The position numbers and the translations under genes were made by a program. Below, piece by piece: positions 39,663 through 61,558 of a stretch of DNA of 64,000 bases. Source of the stretch: Isoetes taiwanensis (Eukaryota; Streptophyta; Lycopodiopsida; Isoetales; Isoetaceae); the NCBI GenBank assembly GCA_021234155.1, contig JAJEKV010000057.1:2389821-2453820 (forward strand). The letters are read 5' to 3'. Positions within the stretch are counted from its first letter, which is position 1. The number at the start of each line of letters is the position of its first letter. Under the pieces are notes generated by a model. That model searched no databases, had not been told where the DNA came from, and worked only from the letters and a program-made list of their open reading frames with translations.

Positions 39663-41225
39663 TGTGACGTTCTAGGTATCTATACGGTATACGTATGCAT
39701 ACCATGACACGTCACCAGGACACAATGGGCTTAATGGTCCAAGTGAGGGTTACCCATAATGGTTTTTATTATCTATGTTAATAAAGCCAAAGGGATAATT
39801 ATGAATTATAATGGCCTAGTTAATCTAATTAAGTCATTATGGTCTAATTAGCTAATTATCACCAATAAGGGGGTGCCACCTGGCCCAAATCGATTGGCCA
39901 GAAGGGACTTACTATTTTGGGCCTAGGAATAGGGGTGCTACCCCATTTTCTATCCCAAATTCGAATTGGGATTGAGGAGGAGCAGCAGCCAGCAGCCTAA
40001 GCTTGTTTTGCTAACACTTACCTACCAATTTCGAGAGATGGATGCCTACCGTGACCATGGTTCCAGCCAGGACACTGGTTAGTCAGTAGATGTTTCTTTT
40101 CTGCTGACACTTCTTTGAGTAGATGGAATGGTTAAATTCTCTTTATGAATTGTTCTGAATACATGAATGGTGATTACATTAGTTCTTTCTGCTTCTTCCG
40201 TGTATTGGGAATTAAGGGAAGGGTAGTGGCCTAAAAGCTTCCTAGAATTAGAGATGTCTCTAGTTAGATCCCTTAATACCCAATAATGCGGCCTGTGTAC
40301 AAGAGCCCACCTGGCTGGGGATGCTATGATGTGCTTCAGCACCAGATAACGAGTATGATGGTGAAACGGGGGTGGGGTTTTGCCTACGTGGCTACAGGAC
40401 TCCTACAATGTGCTAGGCCTATAGTCGGTCACTGTGTGAGGGCCGGGTATGGGTCTGACACTCTCTGGGCCGGAGGGTGGGAGTCTATATGGCCGCCCTA
40501 GGCTCGAACGGGTTGGTGAGCTGACCTTTAGATTTGGGAGAGTAAGTCGGGTACGGACGCGGGGGTCACTGAGGGGGCACGTATTCTCTAGCACACCCAG
40601 GGATCCGTCATACTCGGGGAGGAGACGCCTCTCTGACCTGCCTCATCGGACCGGGGAGATGTAACCCGGAGTAGTCCCAAAAGGGTGATTCCTGGGGATT
40701 GCGTCTCCGGAGGGCTACAAGCACGTCATAGCATGATTCAGCCTATCTGCAAAGTGTGCACAGGAGGCGCGGATGGACTGGACAACCCTAGCCATTGTCT
40801 TATGCCAGCCAACGCCATGTTATACTTCTGTCTATTGATATCTTGAGACCCTGGCCATCAGTTGATCCCTTGGAGTCTGAGCCCGGGGTAGTGCCATGTT
40901 ATTGTGTTATTTCATGTTGTTATGAATGGATTGTCTTTTCCATGATGATGATGGATGGGCCACCCTTCGTGGTGATATATTATTTTGCATTATGATTGTA
41001 TGCTAACGTATATGTATGCTTCCGCTGTATAGGATTTCCCATAGAGGACGTAGGAGGAATGACACCTCCGCGTTCCTCGCCCGGATACTTGGCCATCCCA
41101 AGTAGTCTGAGTTTGACGGAGGGCCTTGCCATGGTGATTTAGTCGCCATGGGAGGGGAAGTCCCGTGTCTATACGATGGGAGCATCGTATGGATTCTTAT
41201 CAGAGCATGATTTTGGTGGACCAAA
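39663..41225 (+). mobile_element. Ty3/gypsy 5' LTR (family A) and primer-binding site
   Basis: The segment starts TGTGACGTTC and matches, inverted, the LTRs at 7667-8944 and 24538-25430. Its 3' end has lost about 20 nt, including the final CATCACA and the TGG of the primer site. What remains (TTATCAGAGCATGATTTTGG at 41197-41216) is clearly the initiator-Met-type site TGGTATCAGAGC plus leader. Length is about 1.53 kb. It is the likely 5' LTR of the plus-strand element that carries the accessory ORFs and gag-pol below. Confidence 0.78.
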
Positions 41226-41587
41226 ATTGTTGCACTGGCCATAGTCTAACTCGTTAGTTGATGGTAAATCTTCCTAGGATAGGACGTCCCAACTCTGTAA
41301 GTAGTATCTCGGTTGGCCTAGTTAAGGAGAGGATGACCTAGTTGTGAGGGGATGTGTTCCATAGTAGGATGGTTAAGGTCAGCAGGTGGAGCCAGAAGTA
41401 CGAGTTTTGTAGTCGCCATAACTTCCTCCACATAGCTCGGATCGACGAGATTTTTGCTCCAATGAGCCGGACATACTCCAAATACCCTATAGGGGTCGTT
41501 AACCGGCAATAGAAAGTTGAGCAAGGGGCCAAACCCAACAGATCCATGAGTATACGGGGAGCAAACCAAATGTTTGCAAAGTAGTGC

Positions 41588-41815
41588 ATGGTGCAATATA
41601 TCTCTGAGATAGTTGATGATGCAGATGTCCAAGTTGATGAGAAGCCAAATGTCAGCAATAAGAAAAATGTTGGAGACAAAAAGAATGCATTGGTGCAGGT
41701 CATGGAGAAAGGGAGGCAAGAACTCCTTCAGCAAATGGCTATTTGGAAGGTAAAAAAGATTGAAGCTATAAACAACTTGCAGGCATCTATTGCAGAACTA
41801 GTCAATAAAATTTAA
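41588..41815 (+). other. Short Lys/Asp-rich coding-like segment
   Basis: Open frame between the 304-bp repeats with DDADVQVDEKPN, NKKNVGDKKNA and a helical end (EAINNLQASIAELVNKI). Codon-like and hydrophilic, perhaps a 3' gene exon carried in the repeat. No family is recognised. Confidence 0.3.
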
Positions 41816-41999
41816 GCCCATGCTGTTGGGTCGCATTAAACATTCTGATTTTTTTTTATGGCTTGAACACTAGTTTAACTATGTCTTGTAACTGCCTAAG
41901 CAGCAGCTGAAAGGGTTTTTTCAGTCTAGATATTTGTTGTAATTCTATAACAACAAACTTTTTTGGCATTTCTAGAATGGTTAACGTCAAAATTTGCGA

Positions 42000-42420
42000 A
42001 ACTCTTGCCAAATATAAAAAATAGAACTCTTGAGGTTCTTTTCACTGACGGTGTCTTTTTTTTAGCTAAGAAGAATTGTATTAAGAAAGTTATAGCCAAT
42101 TTAGTGTGACTGTTGACAGTATAAGTTTTTGGTATTGTTAGCATGAATAGACTTCAAATTTGCAGAAATCTTATATGAAAGGTCGTTCTCTAAATTTCTT
42201 TGCAACAATGGTTTTCTTTAGCTAAACAGATTTGTATTAACAACATTATGACCAATTTAGTGTGACATTTTAGTATTTGTCTTCATGGATAGGCTTCAAA
42301 TTGCAGAAATCTTACTCGATATGAAAGGTAGTTCTGTGAAATTGCTTTCCAACGGTGTCTTATTTTAGACAAAAAGAGTTGTATTAACAAAGTTATTGCC
42401 AATTTAGTGTGATTGTAAAT
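42000..42420. repeat. ~150-bp tandem repeat, three copies
   Basis: CCAATTTAGTGTGA occurs at 42096, 42252 and 42399, each with ATTGTATTAA(G/C)AA before it and, in two copies, CTTCAAATTTGCAGAAATCTTA after it. Confidence 0.8.
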
Positions 42421-43082
42421 TTATGACTGCATTGAATCTAAATCCAGATTCAGAATTTTGCTAACGCGAAATGATATTAAGTTAGAGTATAACCGAGAAT
42501 GTTGTTATTTGTCTTGTTTTACATAACATTTGCTTAAGACGGTGAAAAATTTGATACTTCATGGGTTGAGGGGGCAAAATTGTTGCTCTGATACATTGTT
42601 GTTGAATCATTAATAAAATCCAAGACGCATCAGGTAATAGAACAGAGTTGTTTAAATGAAATAACTGTATGCAAGTAATAGAATGGATTAAATGCTTTTA
42701 TGGCTTATTGTAGATAGCAGAGTATAAAAGAGTTGGTTCTGGGGATGAAATGAATTACAATTGTTAATTGTAACAAGAAGGCCATAGTCTAACTCGTTAG
42801 TTGATGGTAAATCTTCCTAGGATAGGACGTCCCAACTCTGTAAGTAGTATCTCGGCTGGCCTAGTTAAGGAGAGGATGACCTAGTTGTGAGGGGATGTGT
42901 TCCATAGTAGGATGGTTAAGGTCAGCAGGCGGAGCCAGAAGTACGAGTTTTGTAGTCGCCATAACTTCCTCCACATAGCTCGGATCGACGAGATTTTTGC
43001 TCCAATGAGCCGGACATACTCCAAATACCCTATAGGGGTCGTTAACCGGCAATAGAAAGTTGAGCAAGGGGCCAAACCCAAC

Positions 43083-43377: not shown

Positions 43378-44690
43378 ATGGCCAACACCAAGAGTACTTT
43401 GGACCCTGCCAGCCTCACTATACCCCAGATCTATGCACTGATCGGGCAGCACTTGGCCACCGACAGTGACCTGATCGACATCCTCCTAAATGAGTTGGTA
43501 CGGCGCTTTAGCAACGACATTATGATACCTTACCCCATATTCCATTACTCTGAACAATTCTTGATTAAGCTTAATCTCCAACAGCTGCCGTATACCATGG
43601 TCGAGCAACCTGACCAGGTGATGATGCTGATCAAGTTTTACCCCCCTGGGTGCGAAGAACATTCGCAAGAGGAGGGCATTCGAAGAGAGGCCGCCCGTAT
43701 CCGAACATTGGCCCGAGAAGACGACCTTCGGGAGATAGAGCACGCAGACACCGTGGCCCGGGGTCGTGAGTACAGATACTTGGGAGATGGGAGGGCCATC
43801 ATCAATGGCGAGCCTTTCGAGATTCCCCCATACCAGTGGCATGAGGCTGCCAGCACTTTACCTGGACTGAGATCCCAGATATCGGTTTGGACTACCTGAC
43901 AACGGTCCAGATTGATATGAATCTCCGGCCCGACCGCTACCATGCTGAGCTAATCCGAAGGGTCGCGGCCCGGCGGTTTGCCCAGGTGGAAGCCGACATG
44001 GCACGAGCCTGTGAGGCTCGGGAACAGGCAGAAAAGGCTCAAAGGGAGCAACAACAAAAGGAACAGCAGGAAAGGGCCCAGCAAGAGCAACAATAGCAGC
44101 AGGCCAACACAGAGCAAGAGACCCAGCGTGGGCTTGATCAGGCGGACAAGCCGCCCATCAAAAGACGGAGGAAATCCACGGCCCACAAGTCTGGCAGCCA
44201 ATACAAAGAGAAACTAAAGGCTGTCGGAAGCATAGACAAGCACACCAGCTCTAGTCGGCGGCAGGAACGGGTGGAAGCTGCACTGCCCCATCCCGTTACC
44301 GCAGGCAAGACGGTGCCAAAGAAGCCTGGTCCGACTCCAAAGGCTGCCACTTCAAGAAAGCCTCACTGCTTCAGACCGGGCACCGTGGCCTTACGGGAGA
44401 TCCGTAAGTACCAGAAGACTACGGAGCTCTTAATAAGGAAGCTGCCCTTCCAGAGGTTGGTGAGAGAGGTAGCCCAGGAGTTCAAGACTGACCTCCACTT
44501 CCAGACCTTTGCTATTTTGGCACTTCAGGAGGCTGCTGAAGCCTACCTGATTGCTCTCTTCAGTGACGCCAATCTTTGCGCTATCCACGCAAAGAGAGTC
44601 ACAATAATGACCAAGGATTTAGCCCTTGCCCGGAGAATCCGGGGAGATCATCTGTACCTGCCTTCGGGCATTGTCATTGTAAAAATTTAG
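43378..44690 (+). pseudogene. Accessory ORF1: unknown N-terminal domain, coiled coil, and histone H3 fold
   Basis: Start ATG at 43378 (CTCCACCATGG context); about 437 codons. Residues 1-160 (PASLTIPQIYALIGQHLATD...) match no family I know. A Gln/Glu/Arg-rich coiled coil follows, then a basic Ser/Lys region. Residues about 325-425 (44355-44649) form a full histone H3 fold. [20 protein letters not shown] is the alphaN helix, [18 protein letters not shown] is alpha1, and [13 protein letters not shown] and [13 protein letters not shown] are in alpha2/loop 2. [11 protein letters not shown] is alpha3. The H3-H3' interface residues (CAIH...D) are kept, but the ARTKQTARKS tail is replaced. Loop 1 has canonical H3 length, so it is not CENH3. 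Two breaks are seen: a frame slip near 43848 and an in-frame TAG at 44094 within a poly-Gln run. An AATAAA (44757) and an A-run follow the stop. Confidence 0.8.
44355..44649 (+). other. Histone H3-fold domain within accessory ORF1
   Basis: About 80-85 percent identical by eye to canonical plant H3 from the alphaN helix to alpha3, with no gap. Lys residues equivalent to K56 and K79 are kept; the residue at K36 is Arg, and tail residues K4, K9 and K27 have no counterpart. After the fold a 14-residue hydrophobic tail ([12 protein letters not shown]) replaces the usual ERA end. This part is in one uninterrupted frame. Confidence 0.92.
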
Positions 44691-44756
44691 TACATCGTAA
44701 TAGAAATCCCATTTTTGTCTACTGTGTCCCTGTTATAGCATAACTATCTACGATTA

Positions 44757-44812
44757 AATAAACAGATTTTAATGTTCCTTAAAAAAAAAAAGTCAATGCT
44801 GACGTCAGCATA
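44757..44812 (+). promoter_or_regulatory. Poly(A) signal, A-run and 16-bp palindrome with TGACGTCA
   Basis: AATAAA (44757-44762) and 11 As (44781-44791) close the ORF1 unit. ATGCTGACGTCAGCAT (44797-44812) follows at once. It is a perfect palindrome around TGACGTCA, the classic bZIP (CRE/as-1 type) site, about 90 bp before the next ORF. Role inferred from position. Confidence 0.6.
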
Positions 44813-45558
44813 AAGGTACAAAGGGTACTTAAAACGTTTTTAGGGTTTCATTTTCACTCCCTAGTTTTTGTTTATCCTCCTCCCTTCGTCCTTCCAGTGC
44901 CAATGGCCGCCACCAGCATGCTTGAATGGTATCAAGATGGAGAACATTGGGACCCTCAAGTCCCCTTCGATCTCCTACAGCCTTTCTTGCTCCAGCGCAT
45001 CGACCTCATCTCCAACATGCAGAGCCACCCTGATTATGCCGGGTTTTTGCAGTTCTATACTGAGGAGATGCTTCCTCTTTGCACCCCTCTGGGAGAACCC
45101 CCACAGCTATACATTGAGCGAGCTGTGGTGAAGGACATACTTGGAGGGGGCAAGAGTGGCTACGAGGTGCTCAGGGGCAAACTCCGGTGGGCCTGGCACC
45201 CACCCATCGTCATGCATGAGGGACAGGAGCTCCTCGAGGTGTCTTTTGCCCTGGCCATCCTCATGGACCAGTATGTAGAGGATGAGACCTTGCCAGCTGA
45301 GAAGGGCAAGGTCCCTGAGTCGTCAGATGAGGAAGAGGATGAGCATATTGGAATGGATGATTTTGCCCGTTGGAAGCAACTAGCCGAAGAAATGCCGCCA
45401 CGCCGGGAGCGAGGAGGACGTTTAACTGGATTGGATGTCATTCCAGTTATATATCACCAGGGCCAGGAGTTCCTCCTCTTGGATGATATTATATGGACAT
45501 ACCATGTAGTGGCCGGGCTCAAGGGATGGGAGAAAGCACAAGTTCTCTATGAGCTGGC

Positions 45559-45563
<5 letters not shown>

Positions 45564-45598
<35 letters not shown>

Positions 45599-46305
45599 GT
45601 AAGAGTAGATTTTTCCATTAATCAAGAAAAATAATACATAGATCTGCTTAGACCAGCAGAATACATCTTAGTAGAGGTAACTGTAACCATCCTACATAGA
45701 AGGAGGAGATATAGTCCAGAAGTAAATAAAACAAGTCAAGTCTGAAAAATACTGTATTGACCAATGAAGAAAATTCAGCTAGTATGAACCAGTCTTCAAG
45801 AGAAGGATAGTAGTCACGACCCCAACCAAAATTGGATCTTGTTAGCACCTAAAAAAAACAACCAAAATTCTGACCAGATTAGGAATAAAAATTGAGCAAT
45901 TGATGACCGAGCAGGGCAGAAAATGAAGCCAAGAGTGCTGAAAAAGGCTCGGCAGTTTCAAAGCATAGAGAGTCAAGCTTAGAGTTAAAGTAGGCATAGA
46001 AAGGAGCAGCAGATCCAAAAGCATAGGAGTCATCGGTCTGCTCAACAACTTCATCAAAGCAAGATAGATCAGTCTCACTCAAGCAAAGCAAAGAGCCGTA
46101 TAGGTCTGCCAGCAATCTGTGTGTGTAGTACTACTCCCTGAACCTTGAAAACTGATTCTCCGACATAAAGTAGTGGTACATAGAAAGGAAGTCGAACATA
46201 CAATACACCTGCACCACTTCCCTACAGAATATTCCTGCTAAAGTTGTGTTTTTGCACAAAACTGTCTCATTCATAGTAAATTTGCTGAAAAACAAACTCA
46301 GATCA
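45564..46305 (-). mobile_element. 742-bp poly(A) retroposon (5'-truncated LINE or processed transcript)
   Basis: A run of over 30 Ts starts at 45563 and is the poly(A) tail of a minus-strand insertion. TGGCAGAGT at 45555-45563 recurs at 46306-46314 as target duplication. Minus-strand open frames (for example SETDLSCFDEVVEQTDDSYAFG) suggest coding origin, but no RT or known family is seen. The 3' end, TTAATGGAAAAATCTAC followed by As, resembles LINE 3' UTRs. Confidence 0.8.
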
Positions 46306-46734
46306 TGGCAGAGTATTGCATGGATGATTTTATTGATTTCTCATCCATGGATCTCCCTCCTGAGGTATAGCAGCTGCTACAGTTCCACCAGCAAACCATT
46401 GAGCCGGCTGAGACACTTCTCAGGCTTAGGGATCTTGTACTTGAAGATCCTCCATCCCAGCCTCTTCCAGAAGCCTTCACGGCTATGGGACCCCAAGTTC
46501 CAAGTATCAACATGGTCGAGATTCCCTCTCATTCGGATGAGGAAGGGGAAGACCTTTATTATAACCCTGCCCATAGTAGGGAAGAGAAGGAGGAGCTTAA
46601 GGAGGAAGAGGTTCTTATGGACCTAGAGAAGGAAGTAGCCACTTCGGTTACTCCCCAGGGGAAAGCGTCGGGAAACCATCTTACCCGCTTTTTGTTTGGG
46701 GTCTGGGTTCGGGAACTCCTGCAAGACAGCCCTC

Positions 46735-47279
46735 TGTGAGGACCTTTGGATCTAACAGGAGAATCCGGGGGACTATGTCACGCGGGATTTGCAAGAAAAG
46801 AACAAGAAGGAGAAAACAGAACAAGAGAGAACAGTGAGAGGAAAATGATAAGCTTCCTTGATATCAATGATGAACATACATGAGCTCTCGAAATCGAGAG
46901 AAGACTGAAGAGAGACAAGACTCAAAACTCATCTAGAACTCAAGTGCGAGCTCTAGTCCTATATATAGTACAATGGCCTTGGGCCCAATATAGACACTCT
47001 GACTGATCTCGGTGCCGACTCCTGGAAGGAGGCCTGATTTGCAGGAATGTGGGCGGTGCCTCTTGAAGTACTGGAATCATCTTGTGACCGACGCAGCGGT
47101 GGTGGCGGGCCGTCACTTGTCCCGCGGCGGCGTCTCTTGATAGCCTTTGGCTGCGTGGTGCGTGGTCTTCTGGCGAGCCTTTGATGGTGACAATTCGTGG
47201 CTGATTGAGGATCCTTGAGCTTGACACGGTTCTGTCAGATGCATGAATAGTCCCGTGCCGGGGAGGCACGGGACTAACA
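46735..47279 (-). repeat. 3' LTR of the nested gypsy
   Basis: 545 bp. Identical to the 5' LTR over about 335 bp (46739-47070: TATA box, R and U5 portion) but clearly different in the last 205 bp (U3). A TATATATAGG promoter box on the minus strand lies near 46965. Confidence 0.9.
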
Positions 47280-47672
47280 CTCCCCCACCAAACGACACTC
47301 GGTGTGAAGAAAAAGGAGGAAGGGTTTCTGATGGCGGGAAGCCATGGTTCGAAAGTGATCCTCACGGGGAGTGAGGACCGGGCACCATTATGGTAATCGC
47401 CAATGAGATCTGGCGTGTTTGAAGAGCCGTGGGTGTTGAGGCCAAGGGCGTGATCTCGCATCAATAAGAAAGCGAGATCGGACCATGTTTTCAAAGGGCG
47501 GCATGGGCGCCGGAAGAAATGTACCGACATTCCATGAGGAGGTCACGGAGGCCAAAGGCAATCGACACCGCATTCGGATTGCAAAAAAAATGGGGCGTTA
47601 CCCGATTTAAGGAAGCCGAGCAAAATGCATTTGAGAGCCGCACAAAAACACGCTTGAAGATGGTGAAAAGGA

Positions 47673-50264
47673 TCAGGTGAGGTGGTGGCATTCATAAAAA
47701 GGTGTCAAGACCATGAAGCGCATCCGCCGGCCGTTGCCAACCACGCTCATTAGCAATATAGATCCAATTCGTGGTGGTATCCAGAGTGGCACCTTCTTCC
47801 CAATTGGAGCGGCGAACAAAGCGTGGATCCCACCGGAGATCCGTCGAGATCTGAGGTGGTGTCCATCCGGCATGACCATATCCATGACCTTGGTCCAAAA
47901 GGGGAGACGCCAATCAGAAGTCAGGAACCTGGGGCGTGGAGGTACGTCCAGGGAAGCATAGGGAGAAGGAACCATGCCCGTGGGCGTGGGTTGCTGAGCA
48001 GTCTCCCTGAATTGACTGACAAGATCCGGATCAAGAGCTTGACACCAACGATCCCAAAGAGAAGCAGAGAGTTGAGAGTTGACAGGAGGGCTATCCCATC
48101 CCGTGGGGACCGTCTTGCTATCCAACAGAGCCCGTAATTGATTATAACCTGCAAGGTGCTGCATATAAATTTGTGCATAGGGAAGATCCTCAGGATGTCC
48201 CAGATACTTCCTTATTTGTTGCAGCACTTCCGCTTGCCAGAGAGGTAAATGATGCGCAAGCTCAGACATGTACTCTTGATGAAGAGCGTGTGTCTGAGCA
48301 TGATCAGCCAGGTAGGGGTTGTTATCCCCAAGCAACCAGTGAAGGGTGGGGTCACCCTGATAGGTCTGTGGTGGCCCATCCCGAAATCTCTCCTGTGTAT
48401 CACCCAGATAGAAATCATGAAAAATGTAAGCCATGGGCTGAACAACTCTGAAGGTGATGAAATCCGGATCTTCGCAGTGAATGAGATCAAAGACTAAAAG
48501 GGCACAGCAGACACCTTTGTCTTCAATAGAGAGTTCGGGCCAAATGCGAATAAAATCTGCAGTGCGCAGTGGAACATCCACGGGACCATCAGCCCCATGC
48601 CACTTCAGAAGAAAGAGGTGGCGGCGGGCAACCACATAATCCAGATAGCAGGAAGGTACTGGGAAATCAACAGGCAGGTGGCTAACGATGGTGATATAGC
48701 CGTCTAGTTTGGTCTGAGCCTCATCAGCAGACTGAATAGCTTGCTGTAACTGTTGTTCGAGGTCACGGATCCGGTTGTCCTTTTCGAGCAGCAGGCGTGA
48801 TTGGTCACGGACCCGTTTCTGAGAAGTATTGACCTGAGAGGAGGATTGCCCTGGAGTATTGAGACGAAGCACGGCAATCTCCGCGTCATCAAGAATCTTC
48901 TGTTTCTGCACCTCTGTAAGCTGATCTTGAAGAGAGGTGAGCTGAGAGGTTTGGGTAGAAAGTTGAGCCGTCAAGGAGGCAATTTGAGCGTCCCGCTCTG
49001 TAAGGTTTTGAACTTGAGTGCTGAAATTTCCACAAAGTTCAGAGTACAAGGCGTTGAGCTTGGCAATATCTGCATCCTTGGTATCCAGGAGAGCTGCTTT
49101 GGACTTGTTGTGTTCCAATAAAGTCTGAATTTCTGATTGGAGCTGAGCCTGTTGATCTGCAAGTTGGCTGACTTGATCCTGTGCACTTTTGAGATCTATG
49201 CGGGCCTGTAAGAGAGCCCCATGCTTTTCTTGAAGTTGGGCTTCCAAAGTTTGAACTTGGGCTGTTGCAGCTTGAAGGTCCCGGTGTACCGCATCAGAGG
49301 CCTCTAGTGCCTGTTGAACCCCATTCATAAGAGCGTCTTGGGATTCTTGTAACTTGAGAGTAGCAGCTTGAGCATCCTGCTGATACTGATACAATAACTG
49401 ACGAGGGTGTTGTGGTGGTGGAGCCGGCTGTTGCCTGGTTTGTGATGTCTGGGAAAGATGGTGTGAACTGGATGGTGTAGCGGAGGAGGAGACAGTGACA
49501 TGGGTGTGCTGATTTTGGACATGACCAGGGGAAGAAGGGCGTGAAGTGCCAGCACGGTTAGTCAGTGGAAGAGACCGCTGAGTGGAATTATGAGAATTTT
49601 GTGGTGTGGGAGGGAAGTAATGACGGATGAGGGCTTGAAGGTGGCCTCCCACAGAAACTTCAGAAATGGAGGTGGCACCCCGAAGGCGGTCCACTTCTTG
49701 GAGAAGACGATAGAACATCAATTGGGGCCAATCTATGTGGTGGTTGGAGTGTGTAGCAGTGATGACCATGTTATAGAAAGGCTTATTGATATGGGTGTTC
49801 TTGATAGAATACCCAAGGAACTTTCGCCACAGAAACTTAACAAAGGTTTCGTGAGGCTTGTCGATATTGGTCAGACGATGCACATTGGCATGATAAGAAG
49901 GAGCACCAAACTCTGTGACATCTAGATCCTGTATGGCAGACCATGATAAACAAGGGGCTTGCAAGGGAATATGAAATACCTCAGAAATCAAATGTTGAGT
50001 CAGCGAAATGGTGATGCCATCGACCACAGTGGTGTATCCATGCGGGCTGTTAACAATATTGGCGATGAACTGCTTCAGTTGGTCAGGATTTGGAGCCGGA
50101 AGTTCCATTTGAGAGAATTCGTAAAGCTTTTGTCGTTCAGCAACTTCTTTATTTGGGCCAACAAGGGCTTCACGGAAAGTGGGCGTCAAGAAGGATACAG
50201 ATGCAAAAAGAGCCTGATCTTTGGGAGCAGTAGCTTGAAGAGTGGAAAACTTTGGTGCAGCCAT
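47673..50264 (-). CDS. 863-residue coiled-coil ORF downstream of pol in the nested gypsy
   Basis: The longest intact frame in the window (MAAPKFSTLQATAPK...). Residues about 15-215 form a globular region (ISLTQHLISEVFHIP, FVKFLWRKFLGYSI) resembling the plant-transposon-protein domain found in Athila-type ORFs. A Ser/Pro/His-rich linker (220-290) follows, then a long coiled coil (about 290-530) full of Gln and Leu heptads. The C-terminal region (LPVDFPVPSCYLDYVV..., WPELSIEDKGVCCALLVFDL) ends near the LTR; its last ~100 residues may be out of the original frame. It occupies the env/extra-ORF position and has no signal peptide or membrane segment. Its integrity contrasts with the broken gag-pol. 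Confidence 0.75.
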   Translation of the reverse strand: MAAPKFSTLQATAPKDQALFASVSFLTPTFREALVGPNKEVAERQKLYEFSQMELPAPNPDQLKQFIANIVNSPHGYTTVVDGITISLTQHLISEVFHIPLQAPCLSWSAIQDLDVTEFGAPSYHANVHRLTNIDKPHETFVKFLWRKFLGYSIKNTHINKPFYNMVITATHSNHHIDWPQLMFYRLLQEVDRLRGATSISEVSVGGHLQALIRHYFPPTPQNSHNSTQRSLPLTNRAGTSRPSSPGHVQNQHTHVTVSSSATPSSSHHLSQTSQTRQQPAPPPQHPRQLLYQYQQDAQAATLKLQESQDALMNGVQQALEASDAVHRDLQAATAQVQTLEAQLQEKHGALLQARIDLKSAQDQVSQLADQQAQLQSEIQTLLEHNKSKAALLDTKDADIAKLNALYSELCGNFSTQVQNLTERDAQIASLTAQLSTQTSQLTSLQDQLTEVQKQKILDDAEIAVLRLNTPGQSSSQVNTSQKRVRDQSRLLLEKDNRIRDLEQQLQQAIQSADEAQTKLDGYITIVSHLPVDFPVPSCYLDYVVARRHLFLLKWHGADGPVDVPLRTADFIRIWPELSIEDKGVCCALLVFDLIHCEDPDFITFRVVQPMAYIFHDFYLGDTQERFRDGPPQTYQGDPTLHWLLGDNNPYLADHAQTHALHQEYMSELAHHLPLWQAEVLQQIRKYLGHPEDLPYAQIYMQHLAGYNQLRALLDSKTVPTGWDSPPVNSQLSASLWDRWCQALDPDLVSQFRETAQQPTPTGMVPSPYASLDVPPRPRFLTSDWRLPFWTKVMDMVMPDGHHLRSRRISGGIHALFAAPIGKKVPLWIPPRIGSILLMSVVGNGRRMRFMVLTPFYECHHLT

Positions 50265-50802
50265 GGTAACGATTTTTCAGAAACGAAGAGTGTTTCAAAG
50301 GCGGAGGACGAAAGCCAAGTGCGGAGGACGAAGACGCAGAGGAACGAAAAGGTTTTAGGGCGCGCAAAGGTGGGCGAAGGGGCATGATAAGGGCGAAGCT
50401 GCAACCGTTGATGGTGCCAGGTGTCGAAAGATGCCAAGGAGGCGAGTTGAGAGGCAAAAATTTGGCTAAGTCCCCGAAAAACGTAAGGGAGAAACAATGA
50501 ACGGTGAGGATGAGACGTGAGAGAAGGATCGGATGTGACAGGTGGCCAAAGGACATACATTAATGTCCGACGGGCGTGAAAAGAAGAATTGGCATTCAAT
50601 GCTGGCAACTCGAAGTGGGATATCATTAAAAGGAATGTGTCAGAAGGTACTATGGCTAGATATGCGGCGGGAGAAAAGATTCTCATTTTAGAAACAGCCT
50701 TGCATTGCAAACACGTTGGCAATTTGTGTGATTGGTCCACGTCGACAAGGAGTTCCTCATTTGGCTATATAAGACGAACCGGGAGTGAAGCGCAGGCATC
50801 CG

Positions 50803-51069
50803 ATGGCGCTCAGTATGGCTGCGGCTGGTTTGAACGAGGACTGCACTATGCCCACAAACTGTCAGGAGTGGCTGACCTGCAAGATGAATTGCCTGGATCT
50901 CTGGCGCAGCCACAACCGTGGCATTCGAATGGACGGCTGGTGTGCCGGGATGGCTGAACATCCCGATCCGAAGACCAACGCGATGGAGGTGGTGCTGCAC
51001 CTTCGCTGGGACCCGGAGCAGAACCTCTACCACCTCCTGCGCATCACTTCTGCTCCGAACCCGGAGTAG
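50803..51069 (+). CDS. Antisense 88-residue Cys-rich ORF in the nested gypsy
   Basis: It lies between integrase and the 863-residue ORF, on the strand opposite to both. The start ATG (50803) is 39 bp downstream of a CTATATAAG box (50764-50772). The protein is Met/Cys/Trp-rich (CTMPTNCQEWLTCKMNC, RMDGWCAGM) and ends SAPNPE stop. Antisense ORFs at this position are known for some Tat-lineage elements; sequence kinship is not shown. Codon use is GC-rich and clean, unlike the neighbouring pol. Confidence 0.55.
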   Translation: MALSMAAAGLNEDCTMPTNCQEWLTCKMNCLDLWRSHNRGIRMDGWCAGMAEHPDPKTNAMEVVLHLRWDPEQNLYHLLRITSAPNPE

Positions 51070-51353
51070 AGGGTTTTTCTTCTTAGGACGTAGTAGATAG
51101 GGCTCTGAGCCCGTTTTTGTATATAGGGCAGTGCCCATAGCGGAAATAGCTGGGCAGTGCCCACATTTTGTAACAAAAATATCCACTATAATATAATATG
51201 CCGCCTTTCTAGTCACTTTCTGTGGTGTTTTTGCTTGAAGCGTATCCATTTTGTTGATTGTCGTTTTACGTTTGATGAAATGTTTTGAGGCGAAAACCAT
51301 TAACCAATGTTGGTAATGGAGTGCCATCTAACTCTGCCCGGTTGGAAAACGCT

Positions 51354-52512
51354 TTAGTCCGACCACTTGAACAATTTGATAAGGGCCAAGCCAGCGAAAC
51401 TTGAGTTTACAGGAAAATTTTTGTACACGGAATCATAAAGAAGAACCAAATCGCCTTCTTTGAATGTTTTGGTCTTGAGGCGTTTGTCATGGAAAGATTT
51501 TTGCAATGTTGTCCATGAAGAACACGAATATAAGCATCCTTGAAGTTCATCCAACTGTTTCTAATTGATAGACCCGTTCTTTGAGTGCGGCGGTGGATTA
51601 TGAGCGTGCCATTGAAAAGCGAGTGTGGGAAGGATGTATTCAAACGGCATGAGAGCTTCTTGACCATAAACCAACTTGAAAGGAGTGTGACCCGTAGCTA
51701 TTTTGAAACAAGTGTTGTAAGCCCAAAGAACCGTAGGGAAGCTTGTGTTGCCGGTCGGTCTTGCGGCGTCACAAATTTTCTTGAGAATTGTGACGAGTCT
51801 TGTTGGTGCTACGCCAAACCATTGCCTTGAGGATAGTAAGGTGTGCTCTTGTGATGATGTATCGGGGAGATAATCCGTCGGCTCCTTGATGGTATGATTG
51901 ATAAAGTGGACACCCGATCACCGACCAGCTCAGGTGGGGCAGCCGAATCGGCGTGATGATTTGTTGATAGATAACCTTGGGCGTGCTTGCCGCGGTGTTG
52001 TGCGGAAGTGCGCATAAGCTTCCGCCCATTTGGTAAGCGTAGTCGGTGAGAACGAGAATGTGGCGGCACGCGGGTGTGTGCAGCGGGAGGATCGATGGGT
52101 CCCACAAAATCCATTCCCCATTTCTTTGAAGGGAAGTGGGCGTGGCAACCGGCGTCAAAGGGAAGAGCGTCACGGGCCGTGGGGCGTCCCACCCGGCCCG
52201 GCAAAAGCGTCACCGCGTCTTGGCGTGGGCGTGAGCATCTTTGAAGCGTGGGCCAATAATACCCGGCGAGAAGGATTTTTCGCAATGCGTGGTGTCACCA
52301 TGAAAATGACCACCACCTAGCCCTTGATGAGCTTCTCGAACAATATCACGGAACTTCATGAGGGAGAACACGGCGTCGAAGGATGGTGTCGTTACCCTTT
52401 TTGTAAGATGTCCGCAACCATGGTGTAGTCCACCGGACCTGTGCGGGAAAATTGATGGCGGCAGGATTGTCGCTTGGTAGGAAGAGCGTCTCGTCTTACG
52501 GTGGAAGAGCAC
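51354..52512 (-). pseudogene. Nested gypsy integrase, broken
   Basis: Motifs appear in several frames: an HHCC-zinc region (EAHQGLGGGHFHGDTTHCEK), GYYWPTL, KKWGMDFVGPIDP (first catalytic Asp region) and STPYYPQGNGLA (second Asp/Glu region). Frame changes between them rule out active enzyme. Confidence 0.8.
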
Positions 52513-52593
52513 TGTGAGGAGAATGCTTGCTGAAAATCATGGAACCAATGTGGTGTTGCCGTGACTAAAAAAAGCTGAGCATCGGGAAAGGCG

Positions 52594-52973
52594 TCACGAG
52601 ACTCCGGTTGAGGGATCATCTGTGTGGATGCGTGCAAAGATAATCCGGGACGACATGAGATTTGCGGCCTTATGAACAATTTCAAAAGGAGCAAATTCTT
52701 GGAGAAGAAGGACCCAACGAAAGCAATGCGGCCCGTGGGCGTGGACTTGTTGATCAAATAAAGGAGTGCTTGGTGGTCCACAAAGAACTTGATTTGACTG
52801 CTTAAAAGATAGTGGCGGGCGTTGGACACAAAAAATGAGACCCAAAGCTTCACGTTACGTGGCGAGAATAGTTTTTCAGCGAAATTGAGTTTTTCTTGGC
52901 GTAGCGATTTGGTTTGTCGGTTGCGCATCATATTCTTGAGAAAAAACGGCTCAATAGCAAGCGCCAGAGACAT
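52594..52973 (-). pseudogene. Nested gypsy RNase H, broken
   Basis: FFVDHQALLYLINKSTPTGRIA is the usual Tat/gypsy RNase H segment (TDHxALxYLxxK). SRIIFARIHTDDPSTGVSDA is the linker towards integrase. Frame changes occur within. Confidence 0.7.
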
Positions 52974-53088
52974 CTACATGAACATGAAAGGGCTTGTCCC
53001 ATTGAGGAGGAACAAGAACGTGTGCTGAGTAAGTAAAAGCTTCATTTGTTGGAAGCAAACATCCGCTGGGAATTCCAAGCCCGGTGGA

Positions 53089-54300
53089 TTAAATCACCGT
53101 GAGTTTATGAATGGGATCAGCAATGGCTGCTAGTCCAGGTATGAAGGTGGAGTAATAATTGACCTTACCGGAAAGAGCGTGTCTCCTTGATATTGGCTGG
53201 TGCTTGAGCCTTGAGCACTGGCCCGATTTTGGCGGGGATCGTGGTGATACCCCGCTGCGACAACATGGCCCTAACGGAACACGGAGGTGGCTAAAAGGTG
53301 CATTTCTCGGGATTGAGACTAATGCGGACTCATCACATTTACGGAAGGCGAGTTCCAATTTATCCAAATGGTCACCATGGGCTGTGTAAGGCGAGAAGTC
53401 ATCTTGAAAAATTTGTAAGAAGGGATTTTCCTTCATGAAATCATGAAAAGCGAGAGCATGATCGTTGAAGCGTTGATGGAGAGTTTGATAATCCAAAAGG
53501 AACCACCTTGTAGGCAAAAAGTCCCCACGGTGTGGTGAAGGTAGTCTTGAGTTGATCAGATTCTTTGATTGAGATCGATTGTAGCGAAAAAACCCATCCA
53601 TGAAAGAGTACATCTCATGTCCGCAACCTCTTCGGAACACAGTGCGTGAAGGGAAGTGGAAAATGATCACGCTCGTGGCTTTGATTGAGTTTTCGGTAGT
53701 CCCGCAAAAGCGGATCTTACCATTGTGTTTGAGGGCAATGACAATGGGGCTCACCCACTCGGAATGTTTGACCTCATAGATCAAAACTGCGGCAAGGAGT
53801 TTGTCAATTTCCGCCTTGGCGATCCGGTAATTGGGGTTGGCCGTCATCGCATCGTTGCTAGACTGGGCGTGCATCAGATTTGGTAGGAATGGTGAGTTCC
53901 CCCAAGGTTTTGTTAATCCCCGAAGATCTCTGTAGCTCCAGGCAAAAATGTGTTTGAACTTTTTGAAGAGCTTGACAGCCTTGTTACGATAGGGTGTTGG
54001 AAGATTGGCAGCAAGTCGGACAGGCTGATTGTTGCCAACGTCCACGATCTCAACTTCAGGAGTCTGAATATGGGGGATAACTTCCGTATCCTGGACAATA
54101 TGAGCAGGAGGTTGAAGCATAACAGGATGCGTGGCACTCTGCGTGGTGAAAAAGAGAGGTTGCTGAGGTTCCTCAAGCAGTGGTTGCTTCATGACAGCGT
54201 GTACATCGACAGGAGCTGCATGAGGTTCAGCGTCTGAAAAGTGATCAACACGTTGGATTCGATTGCAAGGAGCCAGGTAAGGGTCAAGCAACGCAGCCAC
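53089..54300 (-). pseudogene. Nested gypsy reverse transcriptase, partly open but altered
   Basis: A 403-codon frame keeps FKHIFAWSYRDLRGL, NYRIAKAEIDKLL, EWVSPIVIALKHNGKIRFC and GHEMYSFMDGFFRYN. The catalytic aspartate box expected after FHDFMKENPFLQIF reads FQDDFSPY, and sequence between motifs is out of frame in places. The family is that of Tat/Athila RTs. Confidence 0.8.
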
Positions 54301-54567
54301 GGCTGGTCACGATCAAGAGTCATTTCTCCCCAAGGATCGGCATACCGGGGTAGGATGACGGGCGATTCGCTTGGTGGAGCCCTGAACTTGATAAATATTA
54401 CGGGCGTCTTGAATCGGTGTGGAGAGAGAGGGTTCGGCATTTTCGGCGGAAATGATTTTTGCTGTTTCAAGTCCATGGTGACTAACCGATCCCGTGGCCC
54501 GGTAATGGATGCTCTTGGCTGGCGGAGAAAAGGTGCGCCGACCAACATTTCATAATCACACGGATCT

Positions 54568-54900
54568 TCAGGCCTTCCAAACACCAAATTCAAGGGGAAT
54601 CACGAGATCACCAATGTTGATGTGAAGAAGAGGCGTGATGCCTTGAGGTCTCGTGATATGGCCATTGGCCAATTTGATGTCGTATGGGGCACGATAGAGT
54701 TGTTTGATGCCCATTTGTTTGCGGAGTTTATCCGTGATGAGATTGACCGCGCTACCTCCGTCAATTTGAACATGATTGACTTGTTGATTGCCCACCGTGG
54801 CATGTACCGTGGGAGTAGAGGTAGCAACAGCCCCAACCATAACAGTTGGGAGTGGTAACTGGTCCTTGAGGGCAGGACAGAGTTTCAAAATTGTGGCCAA
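54568..54900 (-). pseudogene. Nested gypsy aspartic protease region
   Basis: HVQIDGGSAVNLITDKLRKQ contains the D-G-G-S active-site loop typical of Tat/Athila proteases (DTG/DSG elsewhere). The local frame is open for 110 codons. Confidence 0.75.
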
Positions 54901-57752: not shown

Positions 57753-58277
57753 CTTTTTCCTATCAGCCTTTAGGCATGGACAAGTTCTTTTTGTGGCCCG
57801 CGACCTGGCCCCAGAAGCAGAGGCATCGTGGTGGAGCCTCCGTGCTTTGTCCACCCTGGCGGGACACAAGAAGTTGTCATACCACATCTTCACTTATGTG
57901 TTGGTACGTCGAGACTTCGCCTTGACCGCCTTGGGCCAGGATATAGCACCCTGGATGAGCATGAAGCTCCTCATGGCGGCCCCACTAGCTGCCGCCTATC
58001 CGCCAGAGATTGCTTCTCTTGTGGCCGCTACGGTGGATCCAGGGGTCACTTTGTTACGTCAGCGGCCGCCACCACCACCTCCTATACCGATGGACCAGGA
58101 TGCGGGGCCTAGCTCCTAGCTACCTATATCATGCATTGTAGAGTATAGCCTTTGGCTACTCAAAAATATGTAACCTTGCATTGATCTTTCATGCACTTTT
58201 TGAACGCAAGCAAATTATTTTTTCCTACAATACTTGTCTTTCTCTTTCTGGAGTTTGAAGTATAAGGAATAATTCAT

Positions 58278-58735
58278 TTGTTGTATATCCATTCTTGCCT
58301 TCTTACAGAAGAGGAAGAGGAAGAAGGGGAACCAGAACAATGGAAAGAACTGGAAGAGGACGAGCCGCCGCCAGAACAAGACTATGAGGAAGAGGATGGA
58401 GAATTTGAAGATGACGACGAAGATTATGAAGAGGAGGAACCAGAGGATGAAGGAGAGCCGCACGACCCCATCAAGGGGTTTGAGATCATTAACATCCTTC
58501 GTGAGCATGCTTTTGAGCATTTGCAATAGACGCTCCGTCGCACATGGAATTATTGGGATATGACTAAGCATGAAGCCTTTGCTGATGCGAACGATCACCT
58601 CTGGCAGATATTTTATGCACTTCGAGACCTCTTTAATTTGTTAATCATCAACCCTACTTTGGACTATCAGTATGTTATAATTCAGGCTTGGGCTAGGTAC
58701 AAAGTGGTCCGAGCAGTGAGGGAGAGTATTTGATA
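58278..58735 (+). pseudogene. Accessory ORF3: acidic protein
   Basis: The frame lacks an ATG before its acidic region but has a strong splice acceptor (TTCTTACAG, 58300-58308) just before it, so it may be an exon. Residues are overwhelmingly Glu/Asp (EEEEEEGEPEQWKELEEDEP...) and then FEIINILREHAFEHLQ. An in-frame TAG (58527-58529) interrupts it. The frame then goes on as TLRRTWNYWDM...QAWARYKVVRAV to a TGA at about 58733. Acidic stretches of this kind occur in histone chaperones, which is suggestive beside an H3 domain but not evidence of function. Confidence 0.55.
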
Positions 58736-58907
58736 CTCTATCTTATATCCCTTCACGCAGCCCTAAGCTTGTTGTTTAAGGACCTTTCCTGTCTACATGT
58801 AACTTTGGTTTTATTTCTTCTGTATAGCCAAAACTTCTTGTAACTGTGCTTTTCATCTTAATGATAAACGTGTTTCCTTTTGTAATCTTATTGTTATAAC
58901 AAATGGA

Positions 58908-60659
58908 ATGAGTATGCTTATCTTTGACTTGTTCTATCTAGACGGTGCACGCCCTCCCCCTTGGGCGACACCCGTTCAACCAGGCCGTCTTACCCCGGAA
59001 CAGGAGCTCACCATTATGAAACGTCAGCTTACTGAGCTCCAAGCATACGTATTGCAGCAGAATCTGCCACAGGAATATGGACCAGAGATTCCTGCTCCAC
59101 TGAACCCGCAGCCTGCACCTGCACCTGCGCCCGCTACGGCAAGTCGATCTAAGAGGACACGCCCTAGCTCATCCTCCAATGCTGCCTCGGAGTCTTCTGA
59201 CTCTTCTGATTCCTCTGAGGATGAGGCCGACCATGCCAAGACCAGCAAAAAGGATTACCAGAAAACGGTGGATTCCGCCATCACTACCATATGGAAGAAT
59301 CGGAAGCTCGCGCAATTCTCAGGGAAAACCAGGAATGGGATAGATGCCGAATCATGGTTGGACGAAATGCAGGAGTTTGGAAAGTCATATGGGATGACTG
59401 ACAAGGATATTGGTAAAGTTGCCACCACCAATCTTACAGGGTCGGCACGAATCTGGTGGAAAGGATATGCTCGCTCTCATGGGCTCACGAGGGGAAGGTG
59501 CCGCTACAAGATTTTTGCCAAAGCCTTTAAATCACATTATGTACCAAAGGCTCATTGTTGCCAGCAGATCCAAACTTTCTATCGCGTAGAACAGAAAAAC
59601 ATGACTGTCCAGGCTTATACAGATGAGTTCATGCGCTTACGCTTATACATCCCAGGGATTAATGAACGTAGGCCCGTTGAAGGCTATACAGATGGCTTAT
59701 CCCCTACCATAAGGAAGATGGTTCAAGCTATAGACCCTAAGACCATTGCAGAAGCAGAGGCTAAAGCACTTAGCCTAGAGGAAGACACCCCGAAGTACCA
59801 ACCACCACGACCCTCTTCGTTCACTCATAACAAGGGGTATACACCTTACAGAGGGCGCTCGCCTAGTCCAGGGCCTCTCGCCTCTACCGGATATCAGAAG
59901 GCTGATAAGAAGGTTTCCTTCACTGTGCCAGAGAAGCCTACCAACACTGCAGGGGCCTTCCGGGATATTCTCCAAGCTATCCCTAGAGATCAACGTGAAC
60001 AGTTACGTAGAGAGAAGGCCTGTTATCGGTGTTTCCGCCCAGGCCACCGTATGCAGGAATGCCCTTTCATCACACAGACAATGCAAGCTGCCCTAACAGA
60101 CATGGATTGGGAGGACCCGGATAATACCGCTGAGGATGACGCGCCTGCCTATATCACAGGTGAGTCTCACATATATGCTGCCATTGAAATAGGTCAAGCA
60201 ATCCACCAGCCCTCTGTCATTTCTACGGTTGGTCAAGTAGATTGTAAACCTTTTGTTATTCTTATGGATACGGGTAGTACTCATAACTTTGCATCACCTA
60301 GAATGGCGGAAGCCTTACAGCTCACCCCTTTGAGGTCTAAGCCACGTCCAGTTACGTTGGCAAGTGGAGCTATACGCCACACCCGTGGTCGCCGTATCAA
60401 TTTGAACATTCAATTGCCAGGAGCATCTATTGCTCTAGGAGCAGAAATAATGGATATTGGCCGTTATGATCTCATTGTGGGAATGGAATTCTTGGCCGCT
60501 GCCAAAGCCAACATTGATTGTGAGAGACGGAGGTTACCTTCAACGCGACCAATGGAGCCCGAGTTACTACAGCAGGTAAGCCGGTTAACCCTATTATGCA
60601 ATGTATTTCCTTACGCCAATTGCATAGGGCTCTCAGGAAGTCACAGATCACGGGCATGA
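58908..60659 (+). CDS. Ty3/gypsy gag-protease (chromovirus-like)
   Basis: 583 codons from ATG 58908. N-terminal Pro/Ser-rich region; gag core (about residues 130-290: FSGKTRNGIDAESWLDEM, TGSARIWWKGYA, TVQAYTDEFMRL); zinc knuckle CYRCFRPGHRMQEC (CX2CX4HX4C, about 60021-60062); aspartic protease with FVILMDTGSTHNF (about 60255-60293) and IMDIGRYDLIVGMEFL. The frame ends early at 60659 because of a slip near 60590, after which RT continues in another frame. An alternative start is an exon boundary at CTATCTAG (58938) just inside the ORF. Confidence 0.88.
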   Translation: MSMLIFDLFYLDGARPPPWATPVQPGRLTPEQELTIMKRQLTELQAYVLQQNLPQEYGPEIPAPLNPQPAPAPAPATASRSKRTRPSSSSNAASESSDSSDSSEDEADHAKTSKKDYQKTVDSAITTIWKNRKLAQFSGKTRNGIDAESWLDEMQEFGKSYGMTDKDIGKVATTNLTGSARIWWKGYARSHGLTRGRCRYKIFAKAFKSHYVPKAHCCQQIQTFYRVEQKNMTVQAYTDEFMRLRLYIPGINERRPVEGYTDGLSPTIRKMVQAIDPKTIAEAEAKALSLEEDTPKYQPPRPSSFTHNKGYTPYRGRSPSPGPLASTGYQKADKKVSFTVPEKPTNTAGAFRDILQAIPRDQREQLRREKACYRCFRPGHRMQECPFITQTMQAALTDMDWEDPDNTAEDDAPAYITGESHIYAAIEIGQAIHQPSVISTVGQVDCKPFVILMDTGSTHNFASPRMAEALQLTPLRSKPRPVTLASGAIRHTRGRRINLNIQLPGASIALGAEIMDIGRYDLIVGMEFLAAAKANIDCERRRLPSTRPMEPELLQQVSRLTLLCNVFPYANCIGLSGSHRSRA

Positions 60660-61398
60660 TCCGACTTGCTTCCGTGGAAGCTAAGTCCAAACAGGATGAA
60701 GTCCTTGATGCCTTGCCTTCAGCAATAGCCATGATGCTTCGGGAATACCATGATCTTTTCCCTGATGAAATCCATCGGCTACCACCTTTCAGAGGGGTAG
60801 AATGTGAAATTACCTTGGAACCAGGTACCAAGCCTACCAGTAAGGCCCCATATCGGATGAGTCTTCCTGAGTTGACCGAGCTTAAGAAGCATTTTACAGG
60901 AACTCCTCAAGTTAGGCTTCATTAGGCCTAGTGTTTCACCCTTTGGAGCCCCAATACTCTTTGTTAAGAAGAAAGATGGCACCATGAGGATGTGCATTGA
61001 TTACCGGCAACTAAATAAGCATACTATTAAGAATCGGTATGCTTTACCACGGGCTGATGATCTTATGGATCAATTGCAAGGGGCTAGGTATTTCACGAAG
61101 ATTGATCTTCGCTCAGGATATCACCAGATAAGAATCAAAGAGGATGACATCCATAAGTCTGCTTTCCGGACTCGCCATGGCCATTATGAGTTTACAGTGA
61201 TGCCATTTGGCCTGTCCAATGCTCCAGCCGCCTTCATGAAACTCATGAATGATGTCTTCCGCGAATACCTTGACGATTTTGTCGTTATATTCTTTGACGA
61301 TATCCTCATATACAGTAAGACGTTAGAAGATCATGAACGGCATCTTCGATTGGCATTACAGAAACTGAGACGCCATCAATTGTATGCCAAATTCTCTA
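60590..61398 (+). pseudogene. Ty3/gypsy reverse transcriptase, truncated
   Basis: In two frames: YHDLFPDEIHRLPPFRGVEC (60660-60925), then [56 protein letters not shown] and the catalytic [10 protein letters not shown] (about 61290). The FFDDIL form and order are typical of chromoviruses. The protein stops after LYAKFSK at 61395, where unrelated AT-rich sequence joins. RNase H, integrase, any chromodomain and the 3' LTR are missing from this copy. Confidence 0.88.
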
Positions 61399-61558
61399 AA
61401 TGGTTTGCAAACCATTAAAATATATGGTTTGCAATAATACATCATTCATTTTGTGTTTTTATTTTCTTGTTTACCTCAAAGTTTATCTATGTTTGCTTCT
61501 TTTGGGGCCCGAAGGGCCCAAAATTTTTTTAATATAACAACCAACATAACTACTATTA
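61399..61558. other. Foreign sequence at the pol break
   Basis: Begins with two near copies of ATGGTTTGCAA(A/T) around an AT-rich core and includes the hairpin GGGGCCCGAAGGGCCC. Its identity is unknown. Confidence 0.4.

What the first reader, a model, noticed from the sequence alone, without database searches (positions are those of the whole stretch)
43378..44690. Histone H3 fold fused to an unknown coiled-coil protein, upstream of a gypsy gag
The C-terminal ~100 codons are an almost canonical H3 histone fold (alphaN to alpha3, interface residues kept) but with the regulatory tail replaced by an unknown ~320-residue N-terminal region. It lies on the same strand between a gypsy LTR/primer site and the gag of a chromovirus-like element. 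I know of no LTR retroelement described with a captured histone. One idea is that it places the element's product into nucleosomes, for targeting or for escape from silencing; this is inference.
Basis: partly seen in the sequence, partly recalled or inferred. Interest (0 to 1): 0.92.

Follow-up and report, generated by a model that had tools for sequence, protein, structure and literature searches.

The report
Retrotransposon family carrying captured histone H3
In a quillwort-like plant genome, a very abundant family of virus-like jumping genes carries its own copy of the DNA-packaging protein histone H3, fused to an unknown protein and kept almost unchanged by natural selection, which suggests that these elements handle the host's chromatin directly.

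Summary
The histone H3 fold is real (Pfam E 1.1e-38). The window copy is broken: stop at 43897, frame change near 43860, TAG at 44094. It belongs to a Ty3/gypsy chromovirus: LTR, tRNA-iMet-type primer site, ORF1 (unknown domain, coiled coil, basic linker, H3 fold), ORF2, ORF3, gag-PR-RT-RH-IN-chromodomain, LTR; about 13.2 kb. Two insertions split the window copy. The genome (by its size probably Isoetes taiwanensis) has 4,444 LTR-end/primer-site junctions and 1,269 sites with the element-type H3 peptide. Of 20 copies chosen by ORF2 rather than H3, 19 keep an H3 match upstream (11 full-length and stop-free); dN/dS there is 0.05-0.07, not far from the RT's 0.03-0.04. The tree fits one capture, from ordinary H3, not CENH3. 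Histone-partner and DNA-contact residues are kept; the ordinary tail is not recognisable. ORF1 modules seem to have moved between pol lineages. Seven literature searches aimed at such an element showed none. Best reading: an adapter histone that pairs with host H4 and carries the fused domain into host nucleosomes. That mechanism is inferred.

The parts
39663..41190 (+). 5' LTR-like region of the H3-carrying chromovirus (diverged; limits approximate)
   Evidence: 39663-40602 is 88% identical to L028 911-1849; 40260-41190 is 69-73% identical to LTR regions of L013, L014 and L027
41195..41206 (+). degenerate primer-binding site, 10 of 12 match to TGGTATCAGAGC
   Evidence: read; intact in other copies
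41237..43079 (+). leader with a direct duplication (about 41237-41536 and 42780-43079) around about 1.2 kb of other sequence
   Evidence: repeat D2
43378..43899 (+). ORF1, start of the N-terminal domain; ends at a premature TGA
   Evidence: homology to L028 ORF1
43857..44690 (+). ORF1 continued in another frame: rest of the N-terminal region, coiled coil, TAG at 44094-44096, basic linker, H3 fold, about 11 codons past the usual stop
44364..44648 (+). histone H3 fold (alphaN to alpha3), 95 residues
   Evidence: Pfam Histone E 1.1e-38; tblastn 83% to host H3
44691..44902 (+). ORF1-ORF2 spacer with poly(A)-signal-like, TATA-like and AGGGTTTCATT motifs
   Evidence: last motif exact in 7 of 9 spacers printed, by eye
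44903..45565 (+). ORF2, first part
   Evidence: 150 scored hits of 4,198 candidates in this genome
45566..46305 (-). insert with poly(T) head inside ORF2 (looks like a retroposed sequence in minus orientation)
46306..46736 (+). ORF2, middle part (alignment to L028 runs to 46693)
   Evidence: 81% to L028
46738..57752 (-). nested minus-strand Ty3/gypsy element (long direct repeats starting near 46738 and 57216)
   Evidence: repeat D1
57753..58119 (+). ORF2, last part
58266..58770 (+). ORF3 remnant (acidic; limits approximate)
58803..60659 (+). open frame with gag, CCHC and aspartic protease
   Evidence: Pfam Ty3_capsid, Retrotrans_gag, RVP_2; CCHC only below the cut-off
60876..61418 (+). reverse transcriptase, truncated
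   Evidence: Pfam RVT_1 E 4e-34

Best explanation
A Ty3/gypsy chromovirus lineage of this plant captured an ordinary histone H3, most simply once, as the C-terminal part of its first ORF. SHOWN: the element anatomy, high copy number, one clade of element H3s, purifying selection close in strength to that on reverse transcriptase, and conservation of the H3 residues that (from recalled lists) meet the second H3, the chaperone Asf1 and DNA, without a clearly recognisable H3 tail. INFERRED: the protein works as an adapter histone. It pairs with host H4, is loaded by host H3-H4 chaperones into nucleosomes (perhaps together with one normal H3), and so fixes its N-terminal domain and coiled coil on chromatin. 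There it serves the element, either by tethering the integration complex to chosen chromatin or by making nucleosomes that lack the usual K4/K9/K27 tail sites and so resist silencing. I think incorporation into nucleosomes about 55% likely, and cannot separate tethering from anti-silencing.
For: Elements: LTR pairs in 6 of 8 loci tested; 5-bp target duplications exact in 4 of the 5 whose two ends were in hand, 4 of 5 bases in the fifth; PBS and PPT; gag-pol domains and, in L019, a chromodomain. Abundance: 4,444 LTR-end/PBS sites, reversed control 0; 1,269 sites with the element-type H3 peptide, control 0. Both lists show only their first 100 places; of the 59 listed exact PBS sites on C1-C548, 21 have that peptide 1.5-5 kb downstream, 0 have it 0-5 kb upstream. 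Selection: H3 fold dN/dS 0.012 and 0.038 (types A, B), RT 0.041 (one pair) and 0.034, ORF1 N-term 0.128 and 0.132; in copies picked by ORF2, 0.051 and 0.069. Contact residues (lists recalled): of 55 copies, T45, R69, F84, K115, R116, T118, C110, H113, A114, D123 and R129 kept in 55; L126 in 53; R49 in 52; R63 in 51. If the protein only bound chaperones, the DNA-contact arginines would not need to be kept. The linker shows no clear similarity to the H3 tail. Precedent: bracovirus H4 is recovered in host nucleosomes (PMC9145170, passages).
Against: No expression, protein or binding data. The N-terminal domain and ORF2 gave no recognisable fold or relative of known function, so the cargo is unknown. 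The H3 part of the AlphaFold model has low confidence (alignment of 19), so the fold rests on sequence identity. All 55 copies are changed at 86, 87, 105 and 107, 54 at 102, and most at 89 and 124, which might weaken or redirect histone contacts. R42 is K in the 12 type A copies and K64 is R in the 26 type B copies. The residue lists are recalled.
Confidence: 0.55

Rival explanations
1. The H3 fold serves inside the virus-like particle: the ORF1 protein, with or without host H4, binds and compacts the element's RNA or cDNA, as viral histones package viral DNA.
For: DNA-contact arginines are kept; the 45 residues before the fold are basic, net +7 to +11 in 20 copies; giant viruses encode histones that are listed under DNA packaging and are found in marseillevirus virions (PMC9405923, passages).
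Against: H3 alone needs H4 for a stable fold (established knowledge); the H3-H3' and Asf1 faces are also kept, which packaging may not need; ORF1 is separate from gag.
Confidence: 0.18
2. ORF1 is a decoy or hijacker: the fold captures H4 and the chaperones Asf1/CAF-1 to disturb host chromatin assembly or silencing, without entering nucleosomes.
For: The Asf1 face (C110, L126, R129, I130; recalled) is kept in 53-55 of 55 copies; the variant chaperone patch (recalled) is changed at 86 and 87 in all 55 copies.
Against: DNA-contact residues are about equally conserved, which a decoy would not need.
Confidence: 0.15
3. The H3 is a passenger: a host gene fragment carried along without function.
For: Gene transduction by plant LTR elements is known (PMC7264820, passages); many copies are decayed.
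Against: dN/dS 0.01-0.07 in the comparisons made; kept in all three ORF1 types although synonymous sites between types are saturated or nearly so; thousands of element copies.
Confidence: 0.02
4. A host histone-fusion gene or gene family, only by accident beside LTR elements.
For: None found.
Against: ORF1 lies between LTR/PBS and ORF2/gag in dispersed copies, some with target duplications.
Confidence: 0.01

Closest known systems
Plant Ty3/gypsy chromoviruses (REXdb clades such as Galadriel, Tcn1; PMC6317226, passages)
   Same: LTRs with TG..CA ends, tRNA-type PBS, gag-PR-RT-RH-IN, C-terminal chromodomain (seen in one copy)
   Different: three extra ORFs between the LTR and gag, one with a histone H3 fold; about 13.2 kb long; in the one copy read the chromodomain seems to lack the first and third aromatic cage residues (placed by eye; cage positions recalled)
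Orchid (Phalaenopsis) Ty3/gypsy elements with a captured AlkB demethylase (PMC9289625, abstract and passages)
   Same: host-derived protein added as an extra ORF, fixed in a lineage, likely directed at host control of the element
   Different: acts on RNA m6A; here a structural chromatin protein, ahead of gag, in several module types
Singlet viral histones: bracovirus H4 and giant-virus H3-like singlets (PMC9145170, passages)
   Same: a single captured host histone (bracovirus H4 about 87% identical in the fold), found in or thought to enter host nucleosomes
   Different: large DNA viruses or polydnaviriforms, not retroelements; no fusion to a long unknown region in the passages that I saw
Additional ORFs of plant LTR retrotransposons (aORFs; PMC7264820, passages)
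   Same: extra ORFs kept in most copies of a family
   Different: that review finds them more often between pol and the 3' LTR; the word histone does not occur in its main text

Membership tests
Ty3/gypsy chromovirus | paired LTRs with 5-bp target duplication | tested here: met
   LTR pairs in 6 of 8 loci; duplications exact in 4 of 5 testable, one with 1 mismatch
Ty3/gypsy chromovirus | gag-PR-RT-RH-IN order | tested here: met
   Pfam on L014 (gag through the integrase core) and L019 (RH to chromodomain)
Ty3/gypsy chromovirus | C-terminal chromodomain on integrase | tested here: met
   Pfam Chromo E 6e-8 in L019, CHD1 match E 1.7e-6; in 21 oriented sequences only L019 itself matched; full-length copies were not fetched that far
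Ty3/gypsy chromovirus | placement in a named clade by RT tree | not tested
   no reference set of plant chromovirus RTs was fetched
canonical histone H3 | H3 histone fold with H3', Asf1 and DNA contact residues (lists recalled) | tested here: met
   by sequence only
canonical histone H3 | ~38-residue N-terminal tail with K4, K9, K27 | tested here: not met
   ORF1 linker mostly no better than shuffles: 24 to 454 of 500 shuffles reach the score in 20 copies; a few type B copies are borderline
centromeric H3 (CENH3) | diverged fold with loop-1 insertion (recalled) | tested here: not met
   the fold aligns over 95 residues without gaps to host H3, type consensus 81-84 of 95 identical; no CENH3 was compared or put in the tree
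singlet viral histones that enter host nucleosomes | incorporation into nucleosomes | not testable with these tools
   needs protein experiments

The most novel reading that the evidence does not exclude
The element makes its own designer nucleosomes: an H3 whose regulatory tail is replaced by a retrotransposon domain is loaded with host H4 onto chromatin. There it marks sites for integration or shields new copies from H3K9-type silencing, while different fused heads are swapped between element lineages in an arms race with the host.
Probability: 0.3. Interest if true: 0.96.

Novelty: new variant of a known kind. Interest (0 to 1): 0.87.

Why it matters
Host silencing of retrotransposons works largely through histone H3 tails (general knowledge). 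A retrotransposon family that encodes its own H3, fused to another domain and kept nearly unchanged by selection, would be a direct molecular handle on host chromatin and makes a testable case of element-encoded nucleosomes. The apparent swapping of ORF1 types between related pol lineages suggests an arms race. It also means that H3 gene counts in this plant must be made with care: most of the 1,269 sites with the element-type H3 peptide are probably transposon-borne.

Tried and rejected

Results against or weakening: the copies were ranked by H3 score, so dN/dS from them is biased low. The ORF2-chosen sample was 20 drawn at random from 112 of the 150 hits (I left out 38 when typing the list, the window itself among them); those hits are the ones most like the window's ORF2. 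Of the 20, 14 folds are full-length and ungapped, 11 of these stop-free, 5 partial or split (one only 20 residues), 1 none; only the 14 entered dN/dS. Of 10 gag-chosen copies (random from 87 of 121 without a listed H3 or ORF2), 6 show H3 at the expected place, several decayed, and 4 do not. N-terminal homology was found in 18 of 20 copies drawn from 114 of the 135 non-canonical H3 hits. In the 20 10-kb loci ORF2 was found in 19, ORF3 in 16, gag in 18, RT in 15. L026 and L027 gave no LTR pair in the stretch fetched. Pairs with dS above 1.5 were dropped from the means. In one search the type C pairs do not show the RT/H3 contrast clearly (see full report).

Literature: ten searches, seven of them on histones and retroelements; judged by titles and abstract starts, no listed paper reports an LTR retrotransposon encoding a histone (one search listed 15 of 172, 10 of 11). 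Bodies were seen only as passages. The word histone does not occur in the main texts held of the two Isoetes genome papers. The library lacks most subscription journals and bioRxiv.

Full report
WHAT IS IN THE WINDOW. The window is G000:C1064:2389821-2453820 of a genome of 1,658,258,908 bases in 1,110 contigs. The published Isoetes taiwanensis assembly is 1,658.30 Mb in 204 scaffolds plus 909 contigs (PMC8566536, passages), so I take the source to be this quillwort; that is an inference from size. The region 44097-44690 encodes an H3 fold (Pfam Histone E 1.1e-38). It is not one open frame with the start at 43378: the frame from 43378 ends at TGA 43897-43899, the rest continues in another frame with a TAG at 44094-44096. 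So this copy is dead. The same strand carries ORF2 in three pieces (44903-45565, 46306-46736, 57753-58119), an ORF3 remnant, gag-protease (58803-60659) and a truncated RT (to 61418). A minus-strand insert with a poly(T) head (about 45566-46305) and a minus-strand gypsy element (about 46738-57752, repeats D1) sit inside ORF2. An LTR-like region and a decayed primer site precede the leader.

THE FAMILY. Pfam Histone against the genome scored 150 of 8,705 first-look candidates: 15 match from profile position 2, as ordinary H3 does, and 135 start at position 4 to 25, many in open frames of up to 494 codons. I fetched 20 loci of 10 kb from these, 18 for long frames and 2 because H3 and ORF2 hits lay together. 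20 of 20 have an ORF1 of 400-459 aa, which in 19 ends within a few residues of the H3 C-terminus and in L020 reads on; ORF2 was found in 19, gag in 18, ORF3 in 16 and RT in 15. Pfam finds Ty3 capsid, protease, RT, RNase H and integrase, and in L019 a chromodomain. LTR pairs were found in 6 of 8 loci tested, with ends TGTGACGTTCC...CGTCACA, a PBS of the initiator tRNA-Met type (recalled) and a polypurine tract. Target duplications of 5 bp are exact in L012, L013, L014 and L016, and 4 of 5 in L015. The L014 element spans about 13.2 kb. LTR divergence (K2P) is 0.045 to 0.122 in six pairs over 1,258-1,385 sites; at a recalled rate of 1.3e-8 this is about 2-5 million years.

COPY NUMBER AND LINKAGE. 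The junction of LTR end and PBS occurs 2,189 + 2,255 times with up to 2 mismatches, reversed control 0. The element-type peptide D-A-N-L-C-A-I-H-A is encoded at 651 + 618 sites, control 0; the counterpart for host-type H3 did not complete, and I did not check how many of the 1,269 sites lie in elements. Each list shows only its first 100 places; of 59 listed exact junctions on C1-C548, 21 have that peptide 1.5-5 kb downstream and none has it within 5 kb upstream. Of 121 gag hits (of 16,227 candidates) 34 have a listed H3 or ORF2 hit upstream within 8 kb, 1 downstream, although those lists are capped. Of 20 copies drawn at random from 112 ORF2 hits, 19 have an H3 match in the 460 nt fetched upstream, 14 of them over the full fold and 11 of these without a stop. 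Of 10 gag-chosen copies without listed H3 or ORF2, 6 show H3.

SELECTION AND ORIGIN. The 41 H3 folds first compared are 82-89% identical to this genome's H3. Within types dN/dS is 0.013 (A, 12 copies), 0.035 (B, 26) and 0.042 (C, 3), against 0.012 between eight host H3 genes. These copies were ranked by H3 score. In the ORF2-chosen sample the ratio is 0.051 (79 of 91 pairs, dS below 1.5) and 0.069 (27 pairs, dS below 0.5), for the 14 ungapped folds, three of them with stops. For comparison RT has 0.041 (one pair) and 0.034, the ORF1 N-terminal part 0.128 and 0.132, ORF2 0.072 and 0.157. In 11 copies with both genes (2 A, 7 B, 2 C) the synonymous difference between types A and B is 0.39 in RT but 0.88 in H3, while within types A and B it is 0.34 in RT and 0.42-0.44 in H3: the ORF1 module seems to have been exchanged between pol lineages. 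Type C is less clear: against A and B, RT 0.58-0.59 and H3 0.81-0.90; the one C-C pair has RT 0.82 and H3 0.62.

WHAT THE PROTEIN LOOKS LIKE. ORF1 has an N-terminal domain with confident predicted structure (about residues 7-230, mostly pLDDT 75 or more, running into a long helix), a disordered Q/E-rich part, a basic linker and the H3 fold; the model of the fold itself is of low confidence because the alignment is shallow. No structure match was clear for ORF1 or ORF2, no protein homolog of the N-terminal part was found, and ORF2 has one distant homolog. In 55 folds, 66 of 95 positions keep the host residue in at least 95% of copies. Residues for DNA contact and for H3-H3' and Asf1 contact (lists recalled) are kept in 51-55 of 55, except R42K in type A and K64R in type B. 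All 55 copies are changed at 86, 87, 105 and 107, 54 at 102, most at 89 and 124; 87-90 is the recalled H3.1/H3.3 chaperone patch. The linker is not clearly like the H3 tail. The chromodomain of L019 appears to have I, W and L at the recalled HP1 cage positions, set by eye; aromatic cages are reported in many non-seed-plant chromoviruses (PMC6317226, passages). The spacer between ORF1 and ORF2 shows poly(A)-signal-like and TATA-like motifs and, in 7 of 9 spacers printed exactly and in one with an extra T, AGGGTTTCATT (by eye), so ORF2 may have its own promoter (inference).

MECHANISM. Shown: a captured H3 under selection, in a retrotransposon family with near-complete copies, with its recalled histone and DNA faces kept. 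Inferred: it enters nucleosomes with H4 and brings the fused domain to chromatin. A pure chaperone decoy would not need the DNA-contact residues; a pure packaging protein may not need the H3-H3' and Asf1 faces. Anti-silencing and integration tethering remain open.

KNOWN WORK. Extra host-derived ORFs in LTR elements are known, e.g. the orchid AlkB element (PMC9289625, abstract and passages) and the aORFs reviewed in PMC7264820 (passages). Single viral histones are recovered in host nucleosomes for a bracovirus and thought to enter them for giant viruses (PMC9145170, passages). My searches listed no paper on a retrotransposon with a histone (judged by titles and abstract starts).

Noticed in passing
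window 47673-50276 (-): 867-aa open frame with coiled-coil character and no Pfam family over its cut-off, between pol and one repeat of the nested minus-strand gypsy element; looks like an additional ORF of Tat/Retand type (recalled).
   Followed up: no
window 7667-8800, 24538-25395: Two further copies of LTR-like sequence, inverted relative to 39843-41164 (D4, D5, D11, I1-I6); probably solo LTRs or fragments of the same or a related family.
   Followed up: no
ORF1-ORF2 spacer, window 44691-44902 and 8 loci: Shared poly(A)-signal-like, TATA-like and AGGGTTTCATT motifs suggest that ORF2 is its own transcription unit inside the retrotransposon.
   Followed up: partly
L009-L028 and window: Between types A and B, H3/ORF1 modules are far more diverged than RT is: probable module exchange between pol lineages.
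   Followed up: partly
window 12061-12501 (-): Reverse-transcriptase-like frame of non-LTR type (judged by eye).
   Followed up: no
window 61559-61635 and 61880-61956: Perfect 77-nt inverted repeat 244 nt apart just after the truncated RT; perhaps a small foldback element (I4).
   Followed up: no
L019: A copy that keeps ORF1 and gag-pol but lacks ORF2 and ORF3, with a 3' LTR start within 10 kb.
   Followed up: partly
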